Shown here one piece after another: positions 174 through 23,738 of a stretch of 23,738 bases of DNA. Below the pieces are notes generated by a model, which saw only the letters and a program-made list of their open reading frames with translations, was not told where the DNA came from and searched no databases. Each line of letters starts with the position of its first letter. The stretch's first letter is position 1. The stretch is from a virus. A program made the position numbers and the translations under genes. The DNA is taken from IMG/VR virus record IMGVR_UViG_3300035698_004408, positions 1 through 23,738 of that record. One strand, given 5' to 3'.

Positions 174-365
174 ATGGACCCCAAGTCCCTGTTCGCTTCG
201 AAAACCATTTGGTTCAACGTCCTGACTCTGCTGGCCTTGAGCCTGACGTCAGTCGCCGATAGCTCGATCATCCTCGGCAACCCCGTTGCTGTTGGTGTGA
301 TCTCGGTCGCCACCGCCTTGGTGAACGTCGGGCTGCGTTTGTTTACGAAGTCGCCGATCAAGTAA
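174..365 (+). CDS. Small holin-like membrane protein
   Basis: This is a 63-residue protein with an N-terminal SKTIWFNV motif, a hydrophobic stretch at about residues 13-26, a second at about 32-52, and a short basic end (RLFTKSPIK). The pattern of SKT-W-N-V followed by two hydrophobic segments and L-R-L/F-T-x-x-P-I is common in small phage proteins annotated as holins or holin-like. If so, it would sit in the inner membrane and release or activate the lysis enzyme. The gene is followed at once by a strong intrinsic terminator, so it ends a transcription unit. No good Shine-Dalgarno is seen before the ATG. Function is inferred from family resemblance and topology only. Confidence 0.6.
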   Translation: MDPKSLFASKTIWFNVLTLLALSLTSVADSSIILGNPVAVGVISVATALVNVGLRLFTKSPIK

Positions 366-388
366 CGCAGATGCTGCGTTCTCACAAC

Positions 389-420
389 CGGGTGCCTAAT
401 AATTAGGCACCCGTTTCTTA
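389..420 (+). terminator. Rho-independent terminator after the holin-like gene
   Basis: A perfect 11-bp inverted repeat (389-399 with 403-413, CGGGTGCCTAA arm) closes on a TAA loop and is followed by TTTCTTA. It lies 23 bases after the stop of the holin-like gene. The near-perfect symmetry could also make it work weakly in the other direction. Confidence 0.85.
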
Positions 421-424
421 CAAT

Positions 425-480
425 CCGCCTGATCCGCCTGATCCGCCTGATCCGCCTGATCCGACGGTAACGCCTGATCC
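425..480 (+). repeat. 9-bp tandem repeat CCGCCTGAT
   Basis: Four perfect copies of CCGCCTGAT occupy 425-460. A fifth, imperfect copy (CGCCTGATCC) is at 471-480 after an interruption, CCGACGGTAA. The array sits between the terminator and the next gene and is bracketed by two copies of CCCGTTTCTTAC (410-421 and 482-493). On the minus strand it reads as an Arg-Arg-Ile repeat with no sign of being a gene. Confidence 0.9.
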
Positions 481-511
481 GCCCGTTTCTTACGCCCACA
501 CACCGATTCCC

Positions 512-1171
512 ATGTCACAGAAAACCGTAGCAGCCGTGCTTATCCTGGTCGCTTCCGCACTTGGCGGCCCCGTTGCTGTGAAGCAATCACTCAACGCCGC
601 ACGAGTGGACGTGGTCATTGTAGGCCCCTCAGACGCCGTTGTAGGCGAGTTGGTGAAGCTGTCGATTGACGGTGACCTTCCCTCTTGGCTGCTGCCTACA
701 GACGACGTACACGTCGACAAGGGCACCTGCTACATCAGCTTCCGCAAGGACGGTCGCTACGAAGTCATCGGCAGCTCGCTGAGCGGCGGCAAGATTATTA
801 ACGTGCGACACTCGATTTTGGTCGGTAAACCGCTCGCCCCGCTCGCACCACTGGCGCCGCCTCTTAAGCGGACTCTCGCAGAAGATGTTGCGAGTTGGGC
901 GGGTGAGTCGTCCGCGCCCAAGGCCGCGTGCCGCGCGATCGGGAAGAATTTTACGGCCGCTGTTAGCCAAGCAACGTCCACCCAGTCACTCTTGACCGCC
1001 GTGTCAGCTCTGAATCGTGAAACGAATCAAGCCGGTTGCGAAGCTGTCCTGGCGAAGATCCAACGGTACATCTTCGAGAACGTCCAAGGCAAAGACCTGG
1101 AAACCCACAAGAGCGCTTTCACCGAAATCGGCAGCGGTCTGATCTCCTACGCCAACTCAACCCCTCAATAG
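512..1171 (+). CDS. Exported hypothetical protein with Pro-rich linker
   Basis: This 219-residue protein begins MSQKTVAAVLILVASALGG, a short hydrophobic segment typical of a signal peptide or membrane anchor. A beta-rich region of about 85 residues follows (roughly residues 30-105, VDVVIVGPSDAVVGELVKLS), resembling an Ig/PKD-like fold. A LAPLAPLAPP linker comes at about 108-117, then an all-helical C-terminal half. It may be an envelope-facing protein of the lysis block or a small virion protein; I cannot name a family. The next gene starts nine bases after its TAG, so the two are probably co-transcribed. It is the first gene after the terminator and repeat, which suggests a new transcript starts between 421 and 511, though I see no clear promoter. 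Confidence 0.7.
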   Translation: MSQKTVAAVLILVASALGGPVAVKQSLNAARVDVVIVGPSDAVVGELVKLSIDGDLPSWLLPTDDVHVDKGTCYISFRKDGRYEVIGSSLSGGKIINVRHSILVGKPLAPLAPLAPPLKRTLAEDVASWAGESSAPKAACRAIGKNFTAAVSQATSTQSLLTAVSALNRETNQAGCEAVLAKIQRYIFENVQGKDLETHKSAFTEIGSGLISYANSTPQ

Positions 1172-1179
1172 AGCGCCCC

Positions 1180-1488
1180 ATGAAAGACATTGCAATCGTC
1201 GGCAACAAGCCGCGAATAATCACCGGCTACAAAACGATCTCTGGCTCCGCCGCCGCCATCGTCTCGTTCGGCCCGGCGCTGACGTGGGGCGTGCTGCTAC
1301 TGTCCGCGCCCGCGAACGTCACGAACTTTGTTGTGTCAACAAACCCCGGTGTCTCCCTCGGCAGCGCTGAGAACGGGGGGTTCCTGCTCGTCCCCGGCGC
1401 CTCGGTATTCGTCCCGGCAGAATATCTTAAGGACGTTTTCTTGTTGCTTGTTTCAGGCACCCCCATCGTCCATTACATGGCCTACTAA
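1180..1488 (+). CDS. Small beta-rich virion-type protein
   Basis: This is a 102-residue protein. The frame is open further upstream (from about 1036), but that part overlaps the previous gene, and the ATG at 1180 just after the preceding TAG is the natural start. The sequence alternates hydrophobic and small residues: a W-G-V-L-L-L strand, then an N-V-T-N-F-V-V-S-T-N-P-G-V strand, then an L-L-V-P-G-A-S-V-F-V turn. This is the pattern of small phage structural proteins in which a surface-type beta-sandwich offsets a coordinate value, often found next to tail fibre or decoration genes. Its stop overlaps the start of the next gene (TAATG), implying translational coupling to the lectin-like protein. 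A virion or receptor-contact role is inferred. Confidence 0.65.
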   Translation: MKDIAIVGNKPRIITGYKTISGSAAAIVSFGPALTWGVLLLSAPANVTNFVVSTNPGVSLGSAENGGFLLVPGASVFVPAEYLKDVFLLLVSGTPIVHYMAY

Positions 1489-2165
1489 TGTTCTTGGGGC
1501 TCCCACGATATGCCGGACCAGGCGGTCTGATCGGTGGCTTTCACAGCACCTACCTCGCACCTCCCGGTGGTGGAGAACCCGCGCCCAATACGGGTCTGGG
1601 CGTGTATTTCAACGGCGTCAATCAGGTTGCGACGTATGCGGCGGCCATCGTGCCCGCCTCTGCGGATTACACGTTCAGCACTGAATACAACATGCCGAGC
1701 TCCAGCGGCGGCGCTCGCTTGTACGCGGCAAACGGCGGTGTATTCTTCATATCAGTCACACGGGTCGAGTACAGCCCTGGCCTGTTCCGTTCACAATGCA
1801 GGCTTCAGGGGCCGTCAGCCTCTGGCACGCTCTCGGTGACTCACAACATCACGCCCGAACTCCCACGAGATGTTTGGTACAAGTTGACAGTCACTAAGGT
1901 CGGCCTGGTCTACACGATCGGTGTAGATGATAACGGGTCTACCGAAGAGACCTTTGCAAACATAATCGACACCCCAAGTAGCACACCCCGCACGGCGTAC
2001 AATGGCTCGGCGTACTCGCGACAGTCGATGCGAAACATTCGCGTAGAATCATCTGCCGGTAATTACTACTATCTTTGTGATGAAGGTACCGGGGTGACTC
2101 TGAATGACAACAGCCCCAACGATAATCACGCGACCATATCCGGCACCGTACCGTACTGGCTGTAA
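1488..2165 (+). CDS. LamG/concanavalin A-like lectin-domain phage protein
   Basis: This 225-residue protein starts within the stop of the previous gene (TAATG). After a Gly/Pro-rich N-terminus (residues 1-40) comes a jelly-roll-like region: YFNGVNQVATYAA, a DYTFSTEYNMP strand, RDVWYKLTVTKVGLVYTIGV, then SMRNIRVES. The end, LCDEGTGVTLNDNSPNDNHA, is the typical closing motif of LamG/ConA-like domains in phage fibre proteins. Such domains bind glycans or stabilise fibre tips. Its distance from the tail genes but adjacency to lysis-type genes is notable. It may be a receptor-binding or decoration protein. The fold call is fairly firm; the exact role is inferred. Confidence 0.7.
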   Translation: MFLGLPRYAGPGGLIGGFHSTYLAPPGGGEPAPNTGLGVYFNGVNQVATYAAAIVPASADYTFSTEYNMPSSSGGARLYAANGGVFFISVTRVEYSPGLFRSQCRLQGPSASGTLSVTHNITPELPRDVWYKLTVTKVGLVYTIGVDDNGSTEETFANIIDTPSSTPRTAYNGSAYSRQSMRNIRVESSAGNYYYLCDEGTGVTLNDNSPNDNHATISGTVPYWL

Positions 2166-2202
2166 CCGGCCACCCCGCCCTTTAGAATGGACCTCTAAGA
2201 AC

Positions 2203-3036
2203 ATGCAAGTAATCCTGTCAGCTATTTGGGCAGCCTCACTGTGCATCACAGTCGCGACCGCAACGCCGCGCTTTGATGTAACACCTGATCCGACCCCTCC
2301 CGAGTGGCAAGAGAGGGGCGCAGGGGAAACGTATGTTCTGTATCGTACCCACAACGTCCGCGCGATGTCGCAAGGCAAAGCGGGTTCCTGCGTAGGGGCT
2401 GCGCACTCGAAGGCACTGGAGCTGCAACACGGCATCCCGTTCTCAGCCGAATGGTCCTACGGCACCAGCCGCAAACACTTCGATCACAACAGCCCGTCCC
2501 CCGGCAGCAATTGTGCATGGGCAGCCCAAGCCGGGAAGGATGTTGGTAACCTCCCGGCCTACTACTACATTTCACAAGGTGTTGACCTTACCGAGTACAG
2601 CGCTCAGCGCGCGAAGCAATGGGAACGCGGCCCGCCCGTCGAGCTTGAATGGGTTGCTGGTCAGTATCGTGGGTCCGGCTTTGTTCATATCTCCTCCTGG
2701 GAGGAACTGCGTGGCGCGATCGCCAGCGGTCACCCCGTCATCGTGGGGAGCCCGGTCGGCTTCGGCTCGAAGCGCGGTCAAGTATTGGACAGCCGCGGTC
2801 GACTGTCTTCGAAGTGGTGGTCACGTTGGCCCCACGCCATGGTTTTCTGTGGTGTTAGTGACGGAAACAGCAAACAAGCCCTACTGCTGAATAGCTGGGG
2901 TTTATCTTGGGTCTCTGGTCCTCGTTGGGTGGGTGATGAGCCCGCTGGTAGTTTCTGGGTGTCGAAGCGCGACGCCGAAAAGATGCTAAGTTATGGGGAC
3001 GCCTGGGCCATCCTTCCTATCCAAGGTTTGAAGTAG
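2203..3036 (+). CDS. Exported papain-like (C1 family) cysteine protease
   Basis: This 277-residue protein starts at ATG 2203; the open frame extends back to 2104, but that part overlaps the lectin gene. Residues 1-20 (MQVILSAIWAASLCITVATA) are a signal peptide. The catalytic signature of clan CA/C1 peptidases is complete: Q57 of the oxyanion hole and C63 in SQGKAGSCVGAA, H211 in RWPHAMVFCGV, and N230 in LLLNSWGLSWV. The enzyme should cleave peptide bonds outside the cytoplasm. It could be an endolysin-like enzyme acting on proteins or peptide crosslinks of the envelope, or a virion protease used at entry. The next gene, an exported thioredoxin, begins immediately after its TAG, so the two are likely co-translated. 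A thiol protease beside a disulphide reductase is a sensible functional pair. The substrate is unknown. Confidence 0.85.
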   Translation: MQVILSAIWAASLCITVATATPRFDVTPDPTPPEWQERGAGETYVLYRTHNVRAMSQGKAGSCVGAAHSKALELQHGIPFSAEWSYGTSRKHFDHNSPSPGSNCAWAAQAGKDVGNLPAYYYISQGVDLTEYSAQRAKQWERGPPVELEWVAGQYRGSGFVHISSWEELRGAIASGHPVIVGSPVGFGSKRGQVLDSRGRLSSKWWSRWPHAMVFCGVSDGNSKQALLLNSWGLSWVSGPRWVGDEPAGSFWVSKRDAEKMLSYGDAWAILPIQGLK

Positions 3037-3618
3037 ATGAAATCCTATGTTCTCGCTCTTACGTTTATTAGTGCTTTGGCGTTCGCCCCGCCCGCTGAGG
3101 GACAAAATTCTGTTGTCATCCCCAATCCTGGTCAAGTGGCTGAACAGTCTGTACCCTACGATCTCGGCTTCTACGCCCCCGACACCCGGCCCGACAGCGT
3201 CATTCCCGAGGGCAAGGCTGATACGGTCGTTGTTTTCTCGGCGTCGTGGTGCGCACCGTGCCGATTGATGAAGCCCACGTGGCGAGAGCTGCGCGCGGAG
3301 GGATACCGAGTCGTCTACATCGACTTGGATAATCCCTATGGTGAAGTCGGCAGCTATCCGTATGTAACGAAAGAGTTCATCGACGGCGCGTTGCAAGACC
3401 GCCCAACCAGTGTCCCCACGATTAAACTTTACAACAGTGAGCTCGACATTCAAATTGGCGAGACCATACACGGGGCCACGTCGAAACAACGCATCAAGGA
3501 AGACCTATGGAAGCCATCACAGTTGCCGGACTTAGCGCAGGATGCTGCGCAGTCATCCTATGTTCCTCCTCAATTATGGCATGGGCTCGACAGATCAAAG
3601 TCACGAAGGCGCTATTAG
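3037..3618 (+). CDS. Exported thioredoxin-like protein
   Basis: This 193-residue protein starts directly after the stop of the protease gene (TAGATG). Residues 1-22 form a signal peptide (MKSYVLALTFISALAFAPPA). The thioredoxin core shows the active-site motif SASWCAPCRLMKP with C72 and C75, and the cis-proline motif SVPTIKLYN with P127. It should reduce or exchange disulphides in the periplasm or at the envelope. The last 37 residues are basic and low in structure, and they are encoded in the region that overlaps the next gene by 112 bases. It may keep the neighbouring papain-like protease in its active thiol form, or open disulphides in a host surface layer. The family is clear; the partner is inferred. 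Confidence 0.88.
   Translation: MKSYVLALTFISALAFAPPAEGQNSVVIPNPGQVAEQSVPYDLGFYAPDTRPDSVIPEGKADTVVVFSASWCAPCRLMKPTWRELRAEGYRVVYIDLDNPYGEVGSYPYVTKEFIDGALQDRPTSVPTIKLYNSELDIQIGETIHGATSKQRIKEDLWKPSQLPDLAQDAAQSSYVPPQLWHGLDRSKSRRRY
3496..3502 (+). promoter_or_regulatory. Ribosome binding site deciding the start at 3507
   Basis: AAGGAAG lies about five bases before ATG 3507, inside the thioredoxin gene. It supports this early start for the overlapping membrane protein rather than a later one after the thioredoxin stop. Confidence 0.7.
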
Positions 3619-3785
3619 CGTGCCCCTTCTGCACTTCATTCTGGTGCAGTCTGATCTTTGATCCCAGTGCCACTGTCTTCGCGACCATGGCTGTCGCAAA
3701 CTTCACCATACTTTTCATTCACTGGAGCTTCACAACCTATGGCAACACTCCTCCCGAGGCCGAAGCTGCTGCGCGGACTGATTAA
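3507..3785 (+). CDS. Small membrane protein with CPFC motif (DUF1360-like)
   Basis: This 92-residue protein begins inside the thioredoxin gene in another frame. The start is supported by AAGGAAG just upstream and by the first membrane segment (about residues 4-25, AGLSAGCCAVILCSSSIMAW), which would be lost with a later start. A second hydrophobic segment lies at about 53-74. Between them is LLACPFCTSFWCSL (C39, C42, C47), which matches the CP-x-C-x-S-F-W signature I associate with DUF1360-type membrane proteins. The function of that family is not known to me. Two conserved cysteines beside a membrane segment, next to an exported thioredoxin, suggest a redox or metal-binding role, but this is inference. 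The tail is polar and acidic. Confidence 0.7.
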   Translation: MEAITVAGLSAGCCAVILCSSSIMAWARQIKVTKALLACPFCTSFWCSLIFDPSATVFATMAVANFTILFIHWSFTTYGNTPPEAEAAARTD

Positions 3786-4110
3786 GCGTCGCATCGTTTC
3801 CGGTGACGCCAAAACCGTCGCGCTCATCAACAGCCGACTCGACGACCCCGCGACGTATCGCGCCCTGAACGAGTATTTCACCACCAATCGCGGATCGAAG
3901 TGGATCGACCGCTTCAAGGTGTGGTGCGACTGGTTGTGGTTGCACAAAGACGCTATCCTGCGCATTCTTGGTCTGGTCCTGATGTTCACTGATGGAGAGC
4001 CCACCCTAAAAACGATCGAGGACGTTGAGGCCGAAGACAAGGCCAAGGCCAAGGCCAAGGCCAAGGCCAAGGCCAAGGTTGAGACGCTCGACTTGGGCTT
4101 CAACAAGTAG
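3739..4110 (+). CDS. Membrane-associated protein with Ala-Lys repeat tail
   Basis: This 123-residue protein has its start chosen at ATG 3739, giving MATLLPRPKLLRGLIKRR; an upstream extension to 3658 would lie inside the previous gene. It overlaps that gene by 47 bases. Residues about 53-78 (KWIDRFKVWCDWLWLHKD, then AILRILGLVLMF) look like an amphipathic helix followed by a short membrane segment, a pattern seen in many uncharacterised proteins of phage lysis regions. The C-terminus has a run of alternating Lys and Ala encoded by AAGGCC repeats. The position directly before the terminase raises the possibility of a small terminase, but no helix-turn-helix is visible and the membrane-like segment argues against it. 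Confidence 0.6.
   Translation: MATLLPRPKLLRGLIKRRIVSGDAKTVALINSRLDDPATYRALNEYFTTNRGSKWIDRFKVWCDWLWLHKDAILRILGLVLMFTDGEPTLKTIEDVEAEDKAKAKAKAKAKAKVETLDLGFNK
4039..4080 (+). repeat. In-frame AAGGCC hexanucleotide repeat
   Basis: Six perfect AAGGCC copies (4039-4074) and a seventh ending AAGGTT code for a Lys-Ala run. The six-base unit keeps the frame, so copy number could vary by slippage without breaking the gene. Confidence 0.92.
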
Positions 4111-10786: not shown

Positions 10787-10859
10787 TGTAGGGTGGAGTA
10801 GCGGTAGCTCAACGGGCTGAGATGGCCTGGAGACGGTGGTTCGAATCCACTCCCTGCAT
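10787..10859 (+). tRNA. tRNA-like gene, atypical anticodon arm
   Basis: Seventy-three bases fold as a cloverleaf. The acceptor stem is TGTAGGG with CCCTGCA (one G-T pair). The D arm is GAGT with GCTC around AGCGGTA. The T arm is GGTGG, TTCGAAT, CCACT. The anticodon stem is CGGGC with GCCTG. With a strict seven-base loop (TGAGATG) the anticodon would be AGA and position 33 would be G, which is abnormal. With a four-bp stem and a nine-base loop, T818 (position 10818) is U33 and the anticodon is GAG. The body resembles bacterial initiator/Met tRNAs more than Leu or Ser tRNAs, and no long variable arm is present. No CCA is encoded. It may be functional, degenerate, or a tRNA mimic. Confidence 0.65.
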
Positions 10860-10882
10860 CTTTTATTCGGTCGACCACAAGG

Positions 10883-11188: not shown

Positions 11189-11629
11189 ATGGAGCCGATT
11201 CGAAACCCGCGAGTGGCCCGATCTCAGAAGCAAGTCTTCTACAACTTCACTCGTCGATACGGCGAGCAAATTGTCCTAAGAAAAGTCCTGTTGAGCGACG
11301 TCGACTACGCCACGGGCAGCCCGACCAGAACCTACACTAGCGTAACGATTAGAAACGCAGTGTACGTCCCGCCGACCGTGGCGCGGAATGTAACCTACAC
11401 CCCCGCGATGATGCAGGCAGTACGCTCCGCCGCGTGGCAGGGTGGCGCCGGTCAGGATATCGAGCACGTTGCGTTCCTCATCTGTGAGCGGGACGTTCGA
11501 GCGTGGGGCGACCTTGACGCGACGCAGTTCATCACGTGGCGAGGTTCTGACTACGAAGTCACCGACGCCCAACACTTTGACGGAGGCGTTGTCGCGACCT
11601 GTAAGGTCGCGAAGGGTTCCCGTACATGA
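11189..11629 (+). CDS. Head-tail connector / head closure-like protein
   Basis: This 146-residue beta-rich protein contains RYGEQIVLRKVLLSDVDYAT, VTIRNAVYVPPTV, HVAFLICERDV and ITWRGSDYEVTDAQHFDGGV. The last motif (W-R-G-x-x-Y-x-V-x-D) is typical of small barrel proteins at the head-tail joint of siphoviruses (head completion/stopper type). It starts directly after the previous TAG and ends in TGA, which is part of an ATGA overlap with the next gene and is itself followed by TAG. Position between coat and tail tube fits a neck role. The name is from pattern and gene order, not from a clear family match. Confidence 0.65.
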   Translation: MEPIRNPRVARSQKQVFYNFTRRYGEQIVLRKVLLSDVDYATGSPTRTYTSVTIRNAVYVPPTVARNVTYTPAMMQAVRSAAWQGGAGQDIEHVAFLICERDVRAWGDLDATQFITWRGSDYEVTDAQHFDGGVVATCKVAKGSRT

Positions 11630-12159: not shown

Positions 12160-12900
12160 ATGGCAAAGATTCAGTTACGCGATACGAAGATTTATTTGCA
12201 AGACGGCCTGGCCGGTACTGCCGCTGTCAATGACGCTTCTGGCGTTGCCGCCACCGACACGTCTGTAACCCTTGACGCCGTCGCGTTAAATACGGCTGCC
12301 ACCACGACTATCCCAGTCGGTGCCCGATTGACGTTCGCAAGCGATCCCACGATCTACACCGTGACCGCCGTCACCGGTGCGGCACCTTCGACTGCGGTCA
12401 CGTTTACTCCCGCGAAGGTTGCACCCACCGCTCCTGATGACGCGGTCATCACGTTCCTCCCGCAACGGTTGCTCATCAAGATCGGTGAAGGCGACCTGTC
12501 GTGGAGCGAAAGCCGTGAGTTCATCTATGACCGCGACCGCGACGTCCTGGACACCGTGCGACAAGGCCAAGATCAACCCGTGTCGGTTGACCTGTCGTTC
12601 ACGTTTGAATACGTGACCGCTCAGACCGCCCACCCTCCGACCCCTGTTGATGCGTTGAATCGTTTCGGCAACGCCAGTGCCTGGGTATCCAGCTCCTCTG
12701 ACTTGTGCGAACCCTACGCTGTCGACTTGATCGTCATTCACTGCGTCCCGTGCGGAACTGATCAGGATCAAGAGCTCCTGTTCCCCGACTTCCGTTACGA
12801 GTCGTTGGACTACTCGATTGCCGACGCCGCAATCAGCGTCTCGGGACAGTGTAACACGACTCGGATCACTACGGTTCGGTCGGACAACGCAAGCTGCTAA
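12160..12900 (+). CDS. Major tail (tube) protein
   Basis: This 246-residue protein starts at ATG 12160, nine bases after AGGAA (12146-12150). Residues 1-15 (MAKIQLRDTKIYLQD) and the second half (IKIGEGDLSWSESREFIYDR, VDLSFTFEYVT, FRYESLDYSIADAAISVSGQ) fit a tail tube protein made mostly of beta strands. Between about residues 25 and 105 lies a Thr/Val/Ala-rich segment (DTSVTLDAVALNTAATTTIP, IYTVTAVTGAAPSTAVTFTP) that looks like an inserted surface beta-domain and resembles one in the coat protein. A terminator follows directly, as after the coat gene. Position before the chaperone and tape measure genes is the standard one. The protein polymerises into the tail tube. Confidence 0.8.
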   Translation: MAKIQLRDTKIYLQDGLAGTAAVNDASGVAATDTSVTLDAVALNTAATTTIPVGARLTFASDPTIYTVTAVTGAAPSTAVTFTPAKVAPTAPDDAVITFLPQRLLIKIGEGDLSWSESREFIYDRDRDVLDTVRQGQDQPVSVDLSFTFEYVTAQTAHPPTPVDALNRFGNASAWVSSSSDLCEPYAVDLIVIHCVPCGTDQDQELLFPDFRYESLDYSIADAAISVSGQCNTTRITTVRSDNASC

Positions 12901-12977: not shown

Positions 12978-13436
12978 ATGAAAATTGGTGGAATTACCCC
13001 GACCCGTGCCCAAGATGTACTGGTCCTCCCCCGAACCGACGGCGACCTGATTTTCCGGGCCCATTCGGTTCTCTCGATGGACGAGTTCAACGCTCTCTGT
13101 CCCAAGCCCACGCCCCCGGTCAAGTTGACCAAGAACGGCAAGGAACTACACGTCGACGCTCCCAGCTACTTGCAAGAAGTGGAAACGTGGGCAAGTCGCC
13201 GACACGCTTTCATCTGCATCAAGTCGCTTGAACCTTCCGACATTGAATGGGACACTGTCAAGGCCGAAAAGCCTGCGACGTGGGAAAACTGGATGAAGGA
13301 TCTGGAGACCGCTGGCCTTTGCTCGATCGAAATCCAGCGAGTCCAACAAGTCGTCATCGACGCGAACGCCTTGAACGAGGCCAAGTTGAAAGAGGCTCGC
13401 GAGTCTTTTCTACGTGGTCAGGGGATCAAGGAGTAG
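12978..13436 (+). CDS. Tail assembly chaperone, short form (G-like)
   Basis: This 152-residue protein starts at ATG 12978, eight bases after GGAG (12966-12969). It is rich in charged helices with few beta strands (TWENWMKDLETAGLCSIEIQ, ALNEAKLKEARESFLRGQGI). It lies between the tail tube and tape measure genes, where siphoviruses code a chaperone that coats the tape measure protein during assembly. In lambda this gene (G) is extended by a programmed frameshift into T. Here the -1 frame past its TAG contains a coding-like segment without its own start, so the same arrangement is likely. Confidence 0.75.
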   Translation: MKIGGITPTRAQDVLVLPRTDGDLIFRAHSVLSMDEFNALCPKPTPPVKLTKNGKELHVDAPSYLQEVETWASRRHAFICIKSLEPSDIEWDTVKAEKPATWENWMKDLETAGLCSIEIQRVQQVVIDANALNEAKLKEARESFLRGQGIKE

Positions 13437-13660
13437 GACGAATCCTCTGGCCCCCTCGCAGGACGGTCAACTACGCAATCTGGTCAGCCTGCATCCGAGT
13501 CGGGTGCAGACCGCCAGGTGTCCAGGCAAACTGGGACGACTGTAGCGTACTCACTCAAGCCAGCATCCTTGCATACGATCAGGTGAGATCCCACGATGAG
13601 GTTCCAAGCCAGCCTAAGTCGAATAGCGCTGGATCAACGTCAGCTCGAAGGAATCGATAG
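12978..13660 (+). CDS. Tail assembly chaperone, -1 frameshift product (GT-like)
   Basis: A -1 shift near the end of the short chaperone would avoid its TAG (13434-13436) and continue to a TAG at 13658-13660, giving about 227 residues. The extension reads VGRILWPPRRTVNYAIWSAC and then WDDCSVLTQASILAYDQVRS. The W-x-x-x-x-x-x-x-Q-A-x-x-L-A-Y-D-Q-V-R pattern is typical of the T part of G/GT chaperones. The extension frame has no usable start codon before a late GTG. Candidate slip points are T_TTT_C (13406-13410) and G_GGG_A (13421-13425). Neither is a perfect X XXY YYZ heptamer, so the exact site is uncertain. The end overlaps the next gene by 65 bases. Confidence 0.65.
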
Positions 13661-14081
13661 CTACGTCCAGGAAACCGTAAAAGAGGCTGCGAGGATCTGG
13701 GTCCGCGCGGCTTTGGAGATTATCCCCTCCTGGTCAGGTGCCTCGCGTGCAACCTTGCAATCACTTGCAGCCGCTGTTGGAGAGCACGTCAGCATTGACC
13801 TGGCGACCGACGCTCCTGATCGGATCTCGCTGGGTAGACTGTCCAGCAGAGGTGGCGTCACGAAGAACGGACAAGGGTCTTGGGAGTTCTACTATGAGAC
13901 CCAGCTCCGCTATCTCACGGCAAACGAAACGACTACCGTAGCGCCCCGCACAGAGGGGCTCCGTGGGAAGCTCAGACAGCCGACCCCGTACAACTTCCGA
14001 GAAGCCGGTAACGCAGCCGTGCGGGCGTACCTGGCGACTATTCAATTCCCTGTTATCCAACTGATTGGATCAGATCTTTAG
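13596..14081 (+). CDS. Minor tail protein (possible HK97 gp10-like fold)
   Basis: This 161-residue protein starts at ATG 13596, inside the predicted frameshift extension of the chaperone. A helix at the start (GIDSYVQETVKEAARIWVRA) is followed by IPSWSGASRATLQSLAAAVG and a final LRQPTPYNFREAGNAAVRAY. The sequence of helix, P-x-x-(S/T)-G-x-x-R-x-x-L motif, strands and a closing helix recalls HK97 gp10-like minor tail proteins, which complete the tail or neck. It is normally found nearer the connector genes, so its place between chaperone and tape measure is slightly unusual. Its TAG is directly followed by the tape measure ATG. Assignment is tentative. Confidence 0.55.
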   Translation: MRFQASLSRIALDQRQLEGIDSYVQETVKEAARIWVRAALEIIPSWSGASRATLQSLAAAVGEHVSIDLATDAPDRISLGRLSSRGGVTKNGQGSWEFYYETQLRYLTANETTTVAPRTEGLRGKLRQPTPYNFREAGNAAVRAYLATIQFPVIQLIGSDL

Positions 14082-15758
14082 ATGGCCGATATCAACAACA
14101 CGATTGGTCTTGACGCCTCCAGTGCGATCAGCTCACTGAACCGGCTGAAGATCTCTGTTGATACCGCCAATGCCTCCATGTCGAAGTTTAAGATCACCGC
14201 CAGTGGTGACATTGAAACGAAATTCGACGGCGCCGCTGCCGGGGCGGAACGACTGAAGAAAGGCACCGACCAGATTGCCACCAGCACGAAGAATGCTAAC
14301 ACGGGGGCCCAGAGTCTCCTGATCTCCTGGCAGTCGATAGCTCGCATTGCTGCGACGCAAATTATTAGCCAGTCTATCAACGAACTCGTCCAAGGGTTCA
14401 CTGAGTCCGCCGAAGCCGCTGCTGAGTTTCAATTCGCGATCGGTCGTATCAACGCCATCGCGGATCAGAGCGAAACAAGCTTTGACAACCTCTCGGATCG
14501 TGTTAAGGCTCTGTCTATCGCGATCGGTCGCGACCTGGGCGAGACCTCTGCGGCTGCCTTTGAAGCGTTGCAAAACGACCTAGGCACTACCTCCGAAACA
14601 TTCAAGCTGCTTGAGAACGACGCCGCCAGGCTGGCGGTCGTCACTGGTGGCTCGCTCGGCGACGCCGTTAGTGCGCTGTCCGCAGTCATCAAAGTGTACG
14701 GCCAGGACAGTGACGACGCCGCTGGTGCCGCCGGTATTTTATTCGGTGCGATCAACGCTGGTCGATTGACGCTCCCTGAGTTGGCTAGCAGTCTCGGTAC
14801 AGTCATTCCGCTGGCCGCGAGACTTGGGGTCAGCTTTGAGCAAGCCGCGTCCTCAATCGCCACAATCTCTCTGGCTGGAGTTGACGCTGCCACTGCGCAG
14901 ACTCAGTTCCGCAACGTCCTGAACAAACTCATCAAACCGACAGAGGAGTTGAAGAAAGCCTTTGTCGGTCTTGGCGTCGACGGATTCGGAGCCCTGCTGG
15001 CACGTAACAATGGCGACGTAGCAGCGGCGCTTGCGGAGATCTCAGGGGAACTTGGGAATAATGAAACCAGGATCGCGAAGGCATTCAATACCATCCGGGG
15101 TAACCTCGGTGTCTTTAACATTCTGTCGCAGAATGGCGAACTTGCAGCGAGCACACTCAAAACAGTAACAACCTCCGCCGGGGAATTAGGCGAGAAGTTC
15201 GAAGAGATCGACAAGCTGGATGCACAAACCGCTAACAAGAACGCGGCGAAATTGGGCGTCATCTTCGTTGAACTCGGGGAACATGCGTTAGTAGCCAAGA
15301 ACGCGGTAACCAGCTTATTCCTGTCTGTCGTCCAGGACTCCGCGACCGCAGAGACGCTCCTGCTCTCCCTCGCGGGGACCGCCGGAATCGCTACGACGGC
15401 ATTCATCGGGCTGAAGGTCGCTGGTATTGGTGCCCTTGCTGGTTTCGCTGGCCCTCTCGCACTTGTTCTCGGTGCCACAACTGCATTCACAGTAGGGGTG
15501 GGGTTGGGGGTCGTTGCTTCCCAAAAGCTCGTCAAGGAGTTTAACTCCCTTGACGACGCAGCTCAGTTCGAATTGGATCGACTGGAGCGAGTTGTTAAAA
15601 TTGTCGAAGAGATCAACGCTGGTAACGTCGCTGAGCTGACCTCCGAGTTGAACAGCGTCGACTCGGTTCTGAACAAGTTGCTGGCATCGTCGCGGACCAC
15701 TGCTGATGGTATTATCGCAGCATTTGCTGCCACTGAAGGTCGCCTGAAAAACGTTTGA
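14082..15758 (+). CDS. Tail tape measure protein, N-terminal part, ended by in-frame TGA
   Basis: This 558-residue product starts right after the previous TAG. Residues about 110-340 show the TP901/PhageMin-type tape measure core: ETSAAAFEALQNDLGTTSET, AINAGRLTLPELASSLGTVI, LGVSFEQAASSIATISLAGV and DAATAQTQFRNVLNKLIKPT. A hydrophobic stretch at about 430-485 (TAGIATTAFIGLKVAGIGAL, then GLGVVASQKLV) is the usual membrane-inserting region. The frame stops at TGA 15756-15758 but continues open in the same frame to 17687. The next segment carries the expected C-terminal tape measure motifs, so this is one gene interrupted by a single stop. Whether it is read through, mutated, or an assembly error cannot be told here. 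Confidence 0.9.
   Translation: MADINNTIGLDASSAISSLNRLKISVDTANASMSKFKITASGDIETKFDGAAAGAERLKKGTDQIATSTKNANTGAQSLLISWQSIARIAATQIISQSINELVQGFTESAEAAAEFQFAIGRINAIADQSETSFDNLSDRVKALSIAIGRDLGETSAAAFEALQNDLGTTSETFKLLENDAARLAVVTGGSLGDAVSALSAVIKVYGQDSDDAAGAAGILFGAINAGRLTLPELASSLGTVIPLAARLGVSFEQAASSIATISLAGVDAATAQTQFRNVLNKLIKPTEELKKAFVGLGVDGFGALLARNNGDVAAALAEISGELGNNETRIAKAFNTIRGNLGVFNILSQNGELAASTLKTVTTSAGELGEKFEEIDKLDAQTANKNAAKLGVIFVELGEHALVAKNAVTSLFLSVVQDSATAETLLLSLAGTAGIATTAFIGLKVAGIGALAGFAGPLALVLGATTAFTVGVGLGVVASQKLVKEFNSLDDAAQFELDRLERVVKIVEEINAGNVAELTSELNSVDSVLNKLLASSRTTADGIIAAFAATEGRLKNV
15756..15758 (+). other. In-frame TGA inside the tape measure gene
   Basis: The codons read AAA AAC GTT TGA AAC AAC ATA CTG. 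Trp (TGG) in place of TGA would give RLKNVWNNILAGFGESRQ, a continuous amphipathic helix. The base after TGA is A. A short stem (GGCTT with GAGCC type pairing, 15774-15789) lies 16 bases downstream but lacks a convincing SECIS loop. Confidence 0.85.
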
Positions 15759-15800
15759 AACAACATACTGGCAGGCTTCGGCGAGAGCCGTCAGCGCATC

Positions 15801-17687
15801 TTGGATCAGGTCAAAGGTACCCTGGACGACTTAGACAAAAGCATCACGGATAATACGAAACAGCTGGGAGCCGCCGGAGACGCCTTGGAGCTGTTTGACT
15901 TCCAGAGGTCGATTGAGGGTCTGGGCAAGCAACAGCAGGCTGCGCGCGCCTTGGAGCGATCCTACGCGGCTGTCTCAGAGGCGGCCCGTGCCGCTGGCTC
16001 GGCTGGGCTCGGCGACGGTTCCCGTGAAACCGCTGAGGACTTATTGAAGGCCGCCGACGCTGCTGCTAAGCTATCACTTAGCCTCGCAGAAGCCAGTGGG
16101 AACTCCTCACAAGTTGCTCGTGCTCAGAACCAAGTCCGGGCTGTCCTTCAGTCTCAGGAGGTTTTGGTTAAGCGGCAATTGCAACTTCAGAAACAGCTTC
16201 CACAGGAAGCTCTGCGTGAGCAGCTAGACGCGATCTCCGATATCAACGAGGCACAGAAGAACTCCGTTGAGCAACAGATTGCTGAGTATAACAAATTGAC
16301 CAAGCAGGTGGCCGAAGGGGTGCCGCGCGAGGCTTTGAAGGATCAGTTCGACGCGATCGCTCAGAATCTTAAAGGCTTGGAAGAGGCTCTACCTGAGTTC
16401 TCCGGCTCGGATATCATCAAAAGGTTCGGGCTGACGAACTTGGCGGAGTCAGTCGAGACTCAGCTCATCAACTCGCTGAATAACCTTGACGTGCGGTGGG
16501 AGACCTCCATCACGAGTCTGAAGAATCAATTGACCAGTGAGCAGTTCGAGGCTACGGTCAAATTGAACGCTATCATCGACTCCGCCGACGTCGACGCAGC
16601 GACGCGAGCAGCGCTGGATGGCGTTCGTACAGACGACCCCACGGTCGGGCTTGAAAAGCGAGCCGAGATTATCAAACAAGCGGTGATCGATCAGAAATCC
16701 GCCGGTGGGGAGTTAGAGCTGACGGGAAAGCAGTTTGCCCTGTCGATGCAGACGGCTGTCACGTCGCTGGAGCTGGCCAGCAAGAATGGATTCTTCGGGG
16801 TGCAGGCCGATAACGCAGCGGCACTTGCGGAACCTGCTATCGCAGCCATCAAGGGAATTGGTGGCGCCTCCGGAGAGGAGCTTGTGGCTATCCGGCAGAA
16901 GCTAGCCGAGGCCATCCAATTCGTCCAGGAGCAGGTACCGGGTGCCACGGGCACCCTGGTTGCAGCCACCCAAGAACAACTGCTGGCCGGCTTGCGGGCT
17001 GGTCTTGCGGCTGCTCAAGCTCAGTCGAAACTGCTCGCAGCGGCTATCACACCTGATCCAGCCGCTCAGACTGATTTAGACGAGCTTCTCCTATTGATTA
17101 ACACACCCCAGACACTTGATCTGGAAGTCCCCACCACAAGTATTGATGGGGCCCGGCAGTCGCTCGATAACATGGAGGGGTCTGCTAGGAATGCCGCCAC
17201 CTCCACGGGTAACATCGGGACCCAGGCATCGTCGGCGGCCGGTAGCGTAGGGAGCCTGAACTCCACTACGGGTTCCCTCGCGAGTTCCGCCCGTAACGCT
17301 GAGTCGGCGTTCAACCGTATGGCGGAAGCGGCTCGCGCTGCCGCTGCTGCTGCGGCTGCCGCCGCCTCAGCGGGCGGTGCCTCATTTGCATTTCACGGGG
17401 GGATGCAGTACATGGCGAGCGGTGGCCGAAGTCGCGGTCAAGACACCCAAGCAACAATGCTTGCCCCCGGAGAGTTCGTCGCCAACCAAAGAGCGACTGC
17501 CAATTTTCTTCCTGAGTTGCAAGCCATCAACGCTGGCAATGCTCCTTCTAGCCCGGGTGGAAACAACACCAATATCAGTATTGGTGACATTAACGTTACG
17601 TCCCAATCCCAGCTACCTTCGCAGACTGCCCGCGAAGTCGGCAACTCCATCAAGCGTGAACTGCGCAGAGGAACATTTAGACTATGA
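15801..17687 (+). CDS. Tail tape measure protein, C-terminal part (same frame after TGA)
   Basis: The frame continues from 15759 to TGA 17687. The first possible start codons are CTG 15768 and TTG 15801, and neither has a Shine-Dalgarno, so separate initiation is poorly supported. The sequence is long, helical and Gln/Ala/Glu-rich, as expected of the tape measure rod. Near the end are an Ala-rich run, FAFHGGMQYMASGGRSRGQD, then TQATMLAPGEFVANQRATAN and FLPELQAINAG, the characteristic C-terminal motif of tape measure proteins (G-G, PGEFV, L-x-x-INAG). Together with the upstream part the protein would have about 1,200 residues. The end overlaps the next gene by ATGA. Confidence 0.88.
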   Translation: MDQVKGTLDDLDKSITDNTKQLGAAGDALELFDFQRSIEGLGKQQQAARALERSYAAVSEAARAAGSAGLGDGSRETAEDLLKAADAAAKLSLSLAEASGNSSQVARAQNQVRAVLQSQEVLVKRQLQLQKQLPQEALREQLDAISDINEAQKNSVEQQIAEYNKLTKQVAEGVPREALKDQFDAIAQNLKGLEEALPEFSGSDIIKRFGLTNLAESVETQLINSLNNLDVRWETSITSLKNQLTSEQFEATVKLNAIIDSADVDAATRAALDGVRTDDPTVGLEKRAEIIKQAVIDQKSAGGELELTGKQFALSMQTAVTSLELASKNGFFGVQADNAAALAEPAIAAIKGIGGASGEELVAIRQKLAEAIQFVQEQVPGATGTLVAATQEQLLAGLRAGLAAAQAQSKLLAAAITPDPAAQTDLDELLLLINTPQTLDLEVPTTSIDGARQSLDNMEGSARNAATSTGNIGTQASSAAGSVGSLNSTTGSLASSARNAESAFNRMAEAARAAAAAAAAAASAGGASFAFHGGMQYMASGGRSRGQDTQATMLAPGEFVANQRATANFLPELQAINAGNAPSSPGGNNTNISIGDINVTSQSQLPSQTAREVGNSIKRELRRGTFRL

Positions 17688-18184
17688 AAGATTTAATCCA
17701 AAAGGCCGGACTCTCCGGCAAGTTTCAAATCCACTGTATCGACAAAGACGGAAACCTGAAGTGGGAGGAAGACTTCCCCAACGGTATCACCAACGTCGGC
17801 ATCGCATACTTGCTGGACGCTGGCTTCGATGACGGGACGAAAAGCACCGCGTGGTTTATCGGTCTGATCGACAACGCGGCCTTCAGTGCTCTTGCCGCCG
17901 CCGACACAATGGCATCGCACGCTGGCTGGGCTGAGTCGTCCGCCTACACCGAAAGTACTCGTCCTGCGTGGACGAATGGGGCCACGGCGTCCCGATCGAT
18001 GACCAACTCTTCCACTGTTGACTTCTCGATGAACGCGACGGCAACCATCAAGGGTGTGTTCATCACGTCGAACAGCACCAAGGCCGGAACCACCGGAACG
18101 TTGTGGTCGACTGCCGCATTCAGCAGCAACGCATCGGTCACGAACGGTGACACGTTGAAGATCACGTACACCATCAACGGCTAA
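17684..18184 (+). CDS. Phage virion-associated protein of unknown function
   Basis: This 166-residue protein is coupled to the tape measure gene by ATGA and preceded by AGAGGAA (17667-17673). It has a short helical start, then NGITNVGIAYLLDAGF, TAWFIGLIDNAAFSALAAAD and TMASHAGWAESSAYTESTRP, and a Ser/Thr-rich beta C-terminus ending in TLWSTAAFSSNASVTNGDTL. I recognise this as a widespread phage protein pattern, with N-x-I-x-x-x-G, W-(F/Y)-(I/V)-G-L-I and D-T-M-x-S-H-x-G-W. It is usually coded among structural genes of podo- and siphoviruses, and its precise function is not known to me. A tail or decoration role is likely from context. Confidence 0.7.
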   Translation: MKDLIQKAGLSGKFQIHCIDKDGNLKWEEDFPNGITNVGIAYLLDAGFDDGTKSTAWFIGLIDNAAFSALAAADTMASHAGWAESSAYTESTRPAWTNGATASRSMTNSSTVDFSMNATATIKGVFITSNSTKAGTTGTLWSTAAFSSNASVTNGDTLKITYTING

Positions 18185-21045: not shown

Positions 21046-23738
21046 AACAATTCTCCCCCTCAGTCGCCGACGCCCTAAACCGCAAGCAGGGGATCGAGAC
21101 TGTTTTGTACATTGGCATTGAGTGGGCGGACGGAGCCGAGACCTTCTACTCCAGCACCGAGGTGGCTGGGTCAATCAAGTCGCTGATCTCCCTTGGCGGC
21201 CTGGAAATGACCACGAGGGTTGGCGGTGGCTCCTCTCAGTCTGCTACGGTTGAGCTCTCTGATACGAACGGTGACCTGACTTCCATCCTGAACACCGTTG
21301 ACGTCCACAAGCGACCCGCCAAGGTCTATCTGAGCTTCCCAGGGGTTCCTGTGGATCAAGCCGTCGTCTTACTGGACGGGGAGATCAATAGTGAGATCAA
21401 GTGGGACGAGGCGGCTAGATCGCTGAGCTTCTCCATTTTATCGCGAATCGAAAGTCGTCAGTTTGGTTTCGCTGCGGAGGATGGCTTGTTCACCAGCGTG
21501 GACCCGAGCCAACTGACAGCCGAGTGGCCCTTTCGCTTTGGCTTCACGTGCTCTCGCCCGACCGTCAAGATTGGCAACGGGATCAAAGGTTTTCTACGGC
21601 GACCTCAAGGTGTCGTGGACGTCACCTTGGACGCTAAGATCTGCCAGGCTGAACAGATTCAATGTCCGACCATCCTAGGTAGAAATCCGGATGGGACGTA
21701 TGGAAACTCCAGGCAAAACATGCAAGTAGCTGATAAACAGTTCGCGAGGCTCCGTGAAGGAAAGCCTGCCACCCTACCGGGCTTCGCTATCAGTGGGGAG
21801 GGCACGGCTATCGATCCTGTTGTGGGTGTAACGAAATTACACCAAGTCGGTTACAAATGCAGCAACGGAACCCTGACTGAAGTCTTTACGCAATATGACG
21901 CTCCCGTTCCGGGAACGTTCAACATCCCACGTGCCCCAGGATATCGAGACCCTGAGGCGACCGGGTATCAGGTACTGCGAGGGAAGTGTATTCCGGACTA
22001 CTCTGACGTCGATCGCAGTTGTGTCAATGACAAATTCTCTGTACTTTGTCAGTACCTGCGACAACGCACGGCTCAGCAATTCTGGGCCTCGCCCACTTTG
22101 ACTGTTGGTGGTGGTGAAAACTTCCCCCAGAATCAGCGCGTTACTATCCTGGTGGGGTCGATCCAGTACACGGGCATATTCTCAGGTGAAATTTTTACTA
22201 TTGAGAAGGTCATTGACCCGGCTGCTAACCCTGCGCAGCTTTGCAAGACGATCCCGCCTTACTCACGCGGCTACCGGAAGACTACTCCCACACTTCCCAC
22301 GACTCTGGCTGCGTGCGAAGCACCCGTCACGGATTACGAACTACGCATCGTCGGTGGGGCGGGCGAAGGGTTCCGAGCACTTGACGAAATTGATTCGAAG
22401 GGATTCCTTTGGCTACCGAGTGGAACCGAAGTGACCCTGCAAAACGGCAGCATCGAAGTTCATATCGTCTCACTGGTGCCCGGCTCTGTATCGCAGGTGA
22501 TGGCTTACCGCAAGGTGGGTGACATTCAACTGTTGACTCAAGTGCCGCCGTCATACTATGAAGTCGTGACGACAGATTACGGCGACCTGAGCGGGGTCGA
22601 GGTCCACCTGGACCGACCGCTTAGCACCTACCGAGATGAGGGCTGGGGTGCGGAATTATATGTCACATTTGTCTCGTCGCTGCCGCACAATCCGGTTGAC
22701 GTCATCCAGTGGATTGCCGAGACGTATACCGACCTGACAATTGACTCGACCAGCTTCTCCGTCGCGAGGGATGCCCTTGGGCGATACCCTTGCAACTATT
22801 ATCACGCGGCTCGCGAGAGTGCCTTGAATACGATGAACAAGATCGCATTCGAGGCGCGCTGTGCTTTGGTTATTAGCGACGGGGTTCTCAAGATCTCCTA
22901 TCTACCCGTGGAACCGGCGTCGCTTCGCACACTCGGGCCCGGCGACGTGGTGGCGACTTCCTTTTCGTTTGACCACACGACGACCGAGGAGCTGGTCACC
23001 TCAAGTCGCGTCTCGTGGCAAGACGTCGGGGCTGGCAGCTTAAGGTCCGATGAGCTTGAAAATAAGTTCACGGTTGACAACAACGTTGAGAAGTACGGAT
23101 TCATCAAGTCGGACACCTCCTACCAAACGATTACCAATAAAGCACAAGCCCTGAAGACGGCAACCTTCTGGTCAATCCGGGACAGTAACACGTGGCGATA
23201 CGCCACGCTGAGCGTTGGCATGGAACACCTGGATCTGGAATCCTATGACTGCGTGACGCTGGCGATCCCGTCCTTTCCCACTGTCAAGTGCATCGTAGAA
23301 CGGGTCGCATATGACCCGTCGCAGGGGGTAGTGGAGCTTCGACTGTGGACGCCGATTCTATCGGGCACGTCGGAAAAGTATCTGTTCGCGTGGCCCGCTG
23401 GGAACAATCAGGCGATCACTTACCCCTTGAACAACTCAGACCTGCCGGTGCCCCGCGTCGCGCTGACGCCGCCTCCGACCAGCCCGCTGTTCGTCGACAC
23501 GCCGAACGCCCGAGCCGCTGCGACGCGCGGTGACCGGTTTCCCAGTGATACCGGAGACACCCTGCCCATTAACGAGTGCCGGGAGACCTCCGACGCCACT
23601 GTCTTAGACGTGATCGAACCCCTCTTCGATGACATTGACCTTAAGGGGGCGGCGGCTCGGTCGGATCAAGTTGCTGCCCAGAACTACTCGGCAAACGTCA
23701 GTCCACCCGGCGGCGGGGGTGGTGGTGGTGGCGGGGGT
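21042..23738 (+). CDS. Tail hub / baseplate protein (3' end outside window)
   Basis: I translated this frame by hand. From ATG 21042 it is open for 899 codons to the last base with no stop, so the gene is cut by the window edge. The N-terminal 160 residues (IETVLYIGIEWADGAETFYS, SLGGLEMTTRVGGGSSQSAT, LDGEINSEIKWDEAARSLSF) form a hub-like beta domain. A Cys-containing middle region (about 175-430) is unfamiliar. Residues about 545-790 read NPVDVIQWIAETYTDLTIDS, YHAARESALNTMNKIAFEAR, CALVISDGVLKISYLP and RVAYDPSQGVVELRLWTPIL. This is the pattern of gp27/gpJ-type tail hubs that close the tail and touch the cell. A Pro-rich linker and at least ten glycines in a row end the visible part. Fibres or a peptidase may follow outside. 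Confidence 0.82.
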   Translation, partial: MKQFSPSVADALNRKQGIETVLYIGIEWADGAETFYSSTEVAGSIKSLISLGGLEMTTRVGGGSSQSATVELSDTNGDLTSILNTVDVHKRPAKVYLSFPGVPVDQAVVLLDGEINSEIKWDEAARSLSFSILSRIESRQFGFAAEDGLFTSVDPSQLTAEWPFRFGFTCSRPTVKIGNGIKGFLRRPQGVVDVTLDAKICQAEQIQCPTILGRNPDGTYGNSRQNMQVADKQFARLREGKPATLPGFAISGEGTAIDPVVGVTKLHQVGYKCSNGTLTEVFTQYDAPVPGTFNIPRAPGYRDPEATGYQVLRGKCIPDYSDVDRSCVNDKFSVLCQYLRQRTAQQFWASPTLTVGGGENFPQNQRVTILVGSIQYTGIFSGEIFTIEKVIDPAANPAQLCKTIPPYSRGYRKTTPTLPTTLAACEAPVTDYELRIVGGAGEGFRALDEIDSKGFLWLPSGTEVTLQNGSIEVHIVSLVPGSVSQVMAYRKVGDIQLLTQVPPSYYEVVTTDYGDLSGVEVHLDRPLSTYRDEGWGAELYVTFVSSLPHNPVDVIQWIAETYTDLTIDSTSFSVARDALGRYPCNYYHAARESALNTMNKIAFEARCALVISDGVLKISYLPVEPASLRTLGPGDVVATSFSFDHTTTEELVTSSRVSWQDVGAGSLRSDELENKFTVDNNVEKYGFIKSDTSYQTITNKAQALKTATFWSIRDSNTWRYATLSVGMEHLDLESYDCVTLAIPSFPTVKCIVERVAYDPSQGVVELRLWTPILSGTSEKYLFAWPAGNNQAITYPLNNSDLPVPRVALTPPPTSPLFVDTPNARAAATRGDRFPSDTGDTLPINECRETSDATVLDVIEPLFDDIDLKGAAARSDQVAAQNYSANVSPPGGGGGGGGGG
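23709..23738 (+). repeat. Polyglycine-coding GGN repeat at the right edge
   Basis: Ten consecutive GGN codons (GGC, GGG, GGT) follow SPP in the hub frame and run into the window edge. The stretch is G-rich on the coding strand and is in frame with the hub gene. Confidence 0.9.

What the first reader, a model, noticed from the sequence alone, without database searches (positions are those of the whole stretch)
14082..17687. Tape measure gene split by one in-frame TGA, with Trp fitting the position
Both halves are in the same frame, the N-terminal half has the tape measure core and the C-terminal half has the PGEFV/INAG end, and the second half has no credible start. TGG to TGA is a single transition and RLKNVWNNILAGF makes a natural helix. 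Options are translational readthrough giving short and long forms, a suppressor tRNA, a decayed prophage, or a sequencing or assembly error. A truncated tape measure would normally be lethal for tail assembly, so readthrough or error is likely if the phage is active.
Basis: partly seen in the sequence, partly recalled or inferred. Interest (0 to 1): 0.7.

Follow-up and report, generated by a model that had tools for sequence, protein, structure and literature searches.

The report
Tape measure gene with stray stop
A phage tail-length gene that is one unbroken frame in all relatives found carries a single stray stop codon in this assembled contig; nothing points to programmed readthrough or a changed genetic code, so it is most likely a base-call error or a recent disabling mutation and of little wider interest.

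Summary
Window 14082-17687 is one reading frame for a siphophage tape measure protein (TMP; Pfam PhageMin_Tail), cut once by TGA at 15756-15758 (558 aa, then 642 aa). Relatives settle what it is. Eight distinct full-length relatives in public viral contigs, 23-59% identical in the N-terminal half, encode the TMP as one uninterrupted ORF of 1165-1463 codons. No recoding signature was found. There is no other in-frame TGA in the 18 window genes with relatives. TGA ends three other reading frames normally. No tRNA in the window could read UGA. The downstream RNA fold is unexceptional and the following codons offer no credible restart. The C-terminal half is not clearly decaying faster than in its nearest relative. 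Best explanation: an ordinary TMP gene with one isolated nonsense base, either a sequencing or assembly error or a very recent inactivating mutation. The two cannot be separated without reads. Not novel; low interest.

The parts
14082..15758 (+). N-terminal 558 codons of the tape measure protein gene, ending at the in-frame TGA
   Evidence: ORF list; PF10145 and PHROG tape measure hits; 23-59% identical to intact TMPs
15756..15758 (+). isolated in-frame TGA; residue in relatives is G, G, E, A, A, Q, T or L, never W, and never a stop
15759..17687 (+). C-terminal 642 codons of the same TMP gene, with the conserved C-terminal end (GDINV...SIKRELRRGTFRL) and the normal terminal TGA that overlaps the next gene's ATG (ATGA)
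12978..13436 (+). tail assembly chaperone G-like gene upstream of the TMP (context)
   Evidence: intact homologues in relatives; position before the TMP
13596..14081 (+). small tail gene immediately upstream of the TMP (context), intact in relatives
17684..18184 (+). next gene, overlapping the TMP's terminal TGA; intact and conserved

Best explanation
This is an ordinary single-ORF phage tape measure gene of about 1201 codons in which one codon reads TGA in this contig. The TGA is an isolated point change: either a wrong base in the consensus of a metagenomic contig, or a very recent nonsense mutation in the phage or prophage copy that was sequenced. It is not a programmed element. If the base is real, the expected product is a 558-aa fragment lacking the conserved C-terminus, and that copy would make defective tails unless suppressed by chance. 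Shown: same frame, homology across the stop, no stop in relatives, no other lesion. Inferred: error or recent mutation as the cause, and the functional consequence.
For: All eight distinct full-length relatives (L010, L012=L013, L014=L017, L015, L018, L019=L002, L021, L022) are uninterrupted across the site. The column is variable with no Trp. All 18 window genes with relatives align without internal stops apart from this one. One lesion in 1201 codons and a C-terminal half that is not accelerated (unique changes window versus L010 with outgroup L012: N 57/55, C 58/55) mean the stop is at most very recent. TGA otherwise acts as a terminator: 11629, 17687 and 21045 in the window and the TMP stop in seven of the eight relatives. 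315 of 10,800 possible single substitutions in this gene create a stop, so a few such genes are expected in any large set of contigs.
Against: No reads, coverage or near-identical contig is available: a pattern search around the site in viral contigs found nothing, so the base itself is unverified. The nearest relative is only about 55% identical, so a lineage-specific recoding that arose after that split cannot be formally excluded. Relative-rate counts with outgroup L014 are uneven (N 31/54, C 60/37).
Confidence: 0.88

Rival explanations
1. Programmed or selected UGA readthrough in which ribosomes sometimes insert an amino acid, giving a 558-aa short form and a 1201-aa long form of the tape measure.
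For: The downstream frame is intact to the conserved C-terminus. A hairpin begins 9 nt after the stop.
Against: No relative has a stop. The downstream fold is no better than shuffles (z 0.11); for the first 36-40 nt, 128 of 1189 and 190 of 1188 other positions in the same gene fold at least as well. The hairpin is not kept at the same place in relatives. Full-length TMP is needed in quantity for every tail (general knowledge of siphophage tails).
Confidence: 0.06
2. Reassigned genetic code (TGA = Trp as in table 4, or TGA = Gly as in table 25), or a phage suppressor tRNA reading UGA.
For: The two nearest relatives have Gly at the position. The contig is a fragment, so a tRNA elsewhere cannot be ruled out.
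Against: Only one in-frame TGA in the homologous genes, and every other Trp there is TGG. TGA ends three other reading frames. The only tRNA found has anticodon AGA. Phages with reassigned stops show low coding density and many broken genes under table 11 (PMC11210395), which is not the case here.
Confidence: 0.02
3. A genuinely split tape measure: two separate proteins made by termination and restart.
For: The second ORF is long and its C-terminus is conserved.
Against: No ATG or GTG within 183 codons after the stop and no clear Shine-Dalgarno sequence before TTG 15801. All relatives encode one polypeptide.
Confidence: 0.02
4. An old, decaying prophage remnant with a pseudogenised tape measure.
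For: A nonsense codon in an essential structural gene is what early decay looks like.
Against: The 18 genes with homologues, from terminase to the tail genes, are otherwise free of stops, and the C-terminal half shows no clear acceleration. No integrase or host flank is evident in the window.
Confidence: 0.05

Closest known systems
Phage tail length tape measure proteins, PF10145 PhageMin_Tail (PHROGs 23013, 4704, 991, 28 and others)
   Same: PhageMin_Tail domain, position after the tail chaperone genes, long helical protein, conserved C-terminal end; homologous along its whole length to intact TMPs of uncultured relatives
   Different: One in-frame TGA at codon 559 that no relative has
Phages with stop-codon reassignment (Crassvirales and others, PMC11210395, PMC9523058)
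   Same: An in-frame stop in a late structural gene
   Different: A single occurrence; TGA still used as terminator; no matching tRNA in the window; normal coding under table 11
Natural UGA readthrough proteins such as the Qbeta A1 coat extension (from memory)
   Same: UGA between two in-frame coding parts of one phage gene
   Different: Not conserved in relatives, no distinctive signal, and it interrupts a core protein rather than adding an extension

Membership tests
Tape measure protein (PF10145) | PhageMin_Tail domain above the gathering score | tested here: met
   81.3 bits against a cut-off of 33.2
Tape measure protein (PF10145) | Gene order after the tail tube and tail chaperone genes, before distal tail genes | tested here: met
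   Same order in L010, L012, L014, L015, L019
Tape measure protein (PF10145) | Single long uninterrupted ORF (usual, not strictly defining) | tested here: not met
   One TGA at 15756-15758; met in all relatives
Programmed stop-codon readthrough | Stop codon conserved among homologues | tested here: not met
   No stop in any of eight distinct full-length relatives
Programmed stop-codon readthrough | Stimulatory downstream structure | tested here: not met
   z-score 0.11; ordinary for this gene and not kept in relatives
Programmed stop-codon readthrough | Extended product detected | not testable with these tools
   Needs proteomics
Stop-codon reassignment (tables 4, 25, 15) | Reassigned codon recurs in many genes and is not used as terminator | tested here: not met
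   One in-frame TGA; TGA ends ORFs at 11629, 17687 and 21045
Stop-codon reassignment (tables 4, 25, 15) | Cognate suppressor tRNA | tested here: inconclusive
   None in the window; the only tRNA has anticodon AGA, but the contig is a fragment

The most novel reading that the evidence does not exclude
A lineage-specific UGA readthrough that makes two lengths of tape measure protein from one gene, having arisen after the split from the nearest sampled relative.
Probability: 0.04. Interest if true: 0.6.

Novelty: not a real feature. Interest (0 to 1): 0.07.

Why it matters
It mainly matters as a caution: a lone in-frame stop in a metagenomic contig should be checked against relatives before recoding is proposed. 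If readthrough were real, it would be a new way to set tail length, but no evidence here favours it.

Tried and rejected
A blastn search of the phage collection with the gene gave no match. A tblastn search gave only weak matches (25-33% identity), limited in the rows listed to the N-terminal third. A pattern search for the stop region in viral contigs found no near-identical copy. A genome-contig search found no relative. Readthrough structure was tested by folding and compared with every other position of the gene and with relatives, and rejected. TGA reassignment was rejected from stop usage and the single occurrence. Restart was rejected for lack of a start. Paper searches turned up no described tape measure readthrough in the titles, abstracts and passages seen. 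The tRNA at 10787 was considered as a suppressor and rejected on its anticodon. A structure prediction was not run because it would not discriminate among the explanations.

Full report
Observation. The frame beginning at ATG 14082 runs 558 codons to TGA 15756-15758 and continues in the same frame for 642 codons to TGA 17687, with no other stop. The first part has the PhageMin_Tail domain (PF10145, 81 bits against a cut-off of 33) and many PHROG tape measure hits; the second part alone matches no family. The record is a 23.7 kb linear virus contig with terminase, portal, capsid and tail genes in order (gene identities from order, homology and general knowledge).

Relatives. A search with the N-terminal half found one good relative, L002. 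A search with the tail tube gene (12160-12900) found a family of 14 contigs. Eight distinct ones carry the whole tape measure gene: L010, L012 (=L013), L014 (=L017), L015, L018, L019 (=L002), L021 and L022. In all of them the gene is one open frame of 1165-1463 codons. Both halves of the window gene align to these single proteins: 59.5% and 51.9% identity with L010, 50.7% and 38.8% with L012, 44.8% and 40.0% with L019. At the column of the TGA the relatives read G, G, E, A, A, Q, T and L. No relative has Trp there, and the protein family is poor in Trp (0 to 4 per protein). The argument that Trp is the natural residue therefore fails; the position tolerates many residues.

Is it recoding? A programmed stop should be conserved at least in the nearest relatives, and it is not. 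The RNA downstream folds no better than shuffled sequence (z 0.11). The 36-40 nt hairpin after the stop is matched or beaten at 128-190 of about 1190 other positions in the same gene, and it is not kept in relatives. TGA is otherwise a terminator: it ends the ORFs at 11629, 17687 and 21045, each as an ATGA overlap with the next gene, and it ends the tape measure gene in seven of the eight relatives. Outside the tape measure gene no homologous gene has an in-frame TGA. The only tRNA in the window has anticodon AGA. A changed code or a suppressor system is therefore not supported. Published reassigned phages show a genome-wide loss of coding density under table 11 (PMC11210395), which is not seen here.

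Is it a split gene or a decayed one? After the stop the first in-frame ATG or GTG is 183 codons away, and TTG 15801 lacks a clear ribosome-binding site, so two proteins by restart is unlikely. All 18 window genes that have relatives, from terminase (4025) to tail (21042), are otherwise free of internal stops. The last 45 alignment columns, the most recognisable part of the C-terminus, are intact in the window. Using L012 as outgroup, the window and L010 have equal numbers of unique changes in both halves (57/55 and 58/55); with other outgroups the counts scatter. The downstream part was thus probably under constraint until very recently. The stop is either not in the living phage or very new.

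Conclusion. The most economical account is a normal tape measure gene with one isolated nonsense base in the assembled sequence. I put roughly equal weight, slightly favouring error, on a consensus error and on a recent inactivating mutation; only reads or near-identical contigs can separate them. About 2.9% of single-base changes in this gene create a stop (315 of 10,800), so such cases are expected when many contigs are screened.

Side results. Just upstream, the tail assembly chaperone gene (12978-13436) is followed by a -1 frame extension to about 13660 that is 78% identical in L010 and is found in all family members that cover the region. By reading the sequence, it is entered around TCT TTT CTA near the end of the chaperone gene. 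This is the familiar G-GT type frameshift of long-tailed phages (PMC5009743), so the one recoding event with comparative support here lies elsewhere and is of a known kind. A tRNA gene or tRNA-like remnant follows the capsid gene in several members.

Noticed in passing
window 13400-13660 (after chaperone gene 12978-13436): A -1 frame extension (SRVFSTWSGDQGVGRILWPPRRT...) conserved in all relatives covering the region (78% in L010 down to 34% in L022), entered near TCT TTT CTA: a G/GT-type programmed -1 frameshift of the tail chaperone, a known kind.
   Followed up: partly
window 10787-10860; L012 2455-2527; L015 6108-6182; L009/L010 just after the capsid gene: A tRNA gene sits just after the major capsid gene in several members with different anticodons (Ser AGA with an odd G33 in the window, Met CAT in L012, unclear in L015), while L009/L010 seem to keep only the two ends of a tRNA; a tRNA site in the middle of the structural operon that looks to be decaying or turning over.
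   Followed up: partly
window 423-483 and 4038-4078: Short tandem repeats of 9 bases (ATCCGCCTG, 6.8 copies) and 6 bases (CAAGGC, 6.8 exact copies); the second encodes an Ala-Lys run at the end of the ORF before the terminase and lies just upstream of the likely terminase start.
   Followed up: no
window 23700-23738: The contig ends inside a run of Gly codons (PPGGGGGGGGGG) of the last ORF, so assembly probably broke at a low-complexity repeat.
   Followed up: no
window 174-4110: The first 4 kb, including a papain-like peptidase-like ORF (2104-3036) and a thioredoxin-like ORF (3037-3618, CxxC), had no match in the fetched relatives; identities are by eye only.
   Followed up: no
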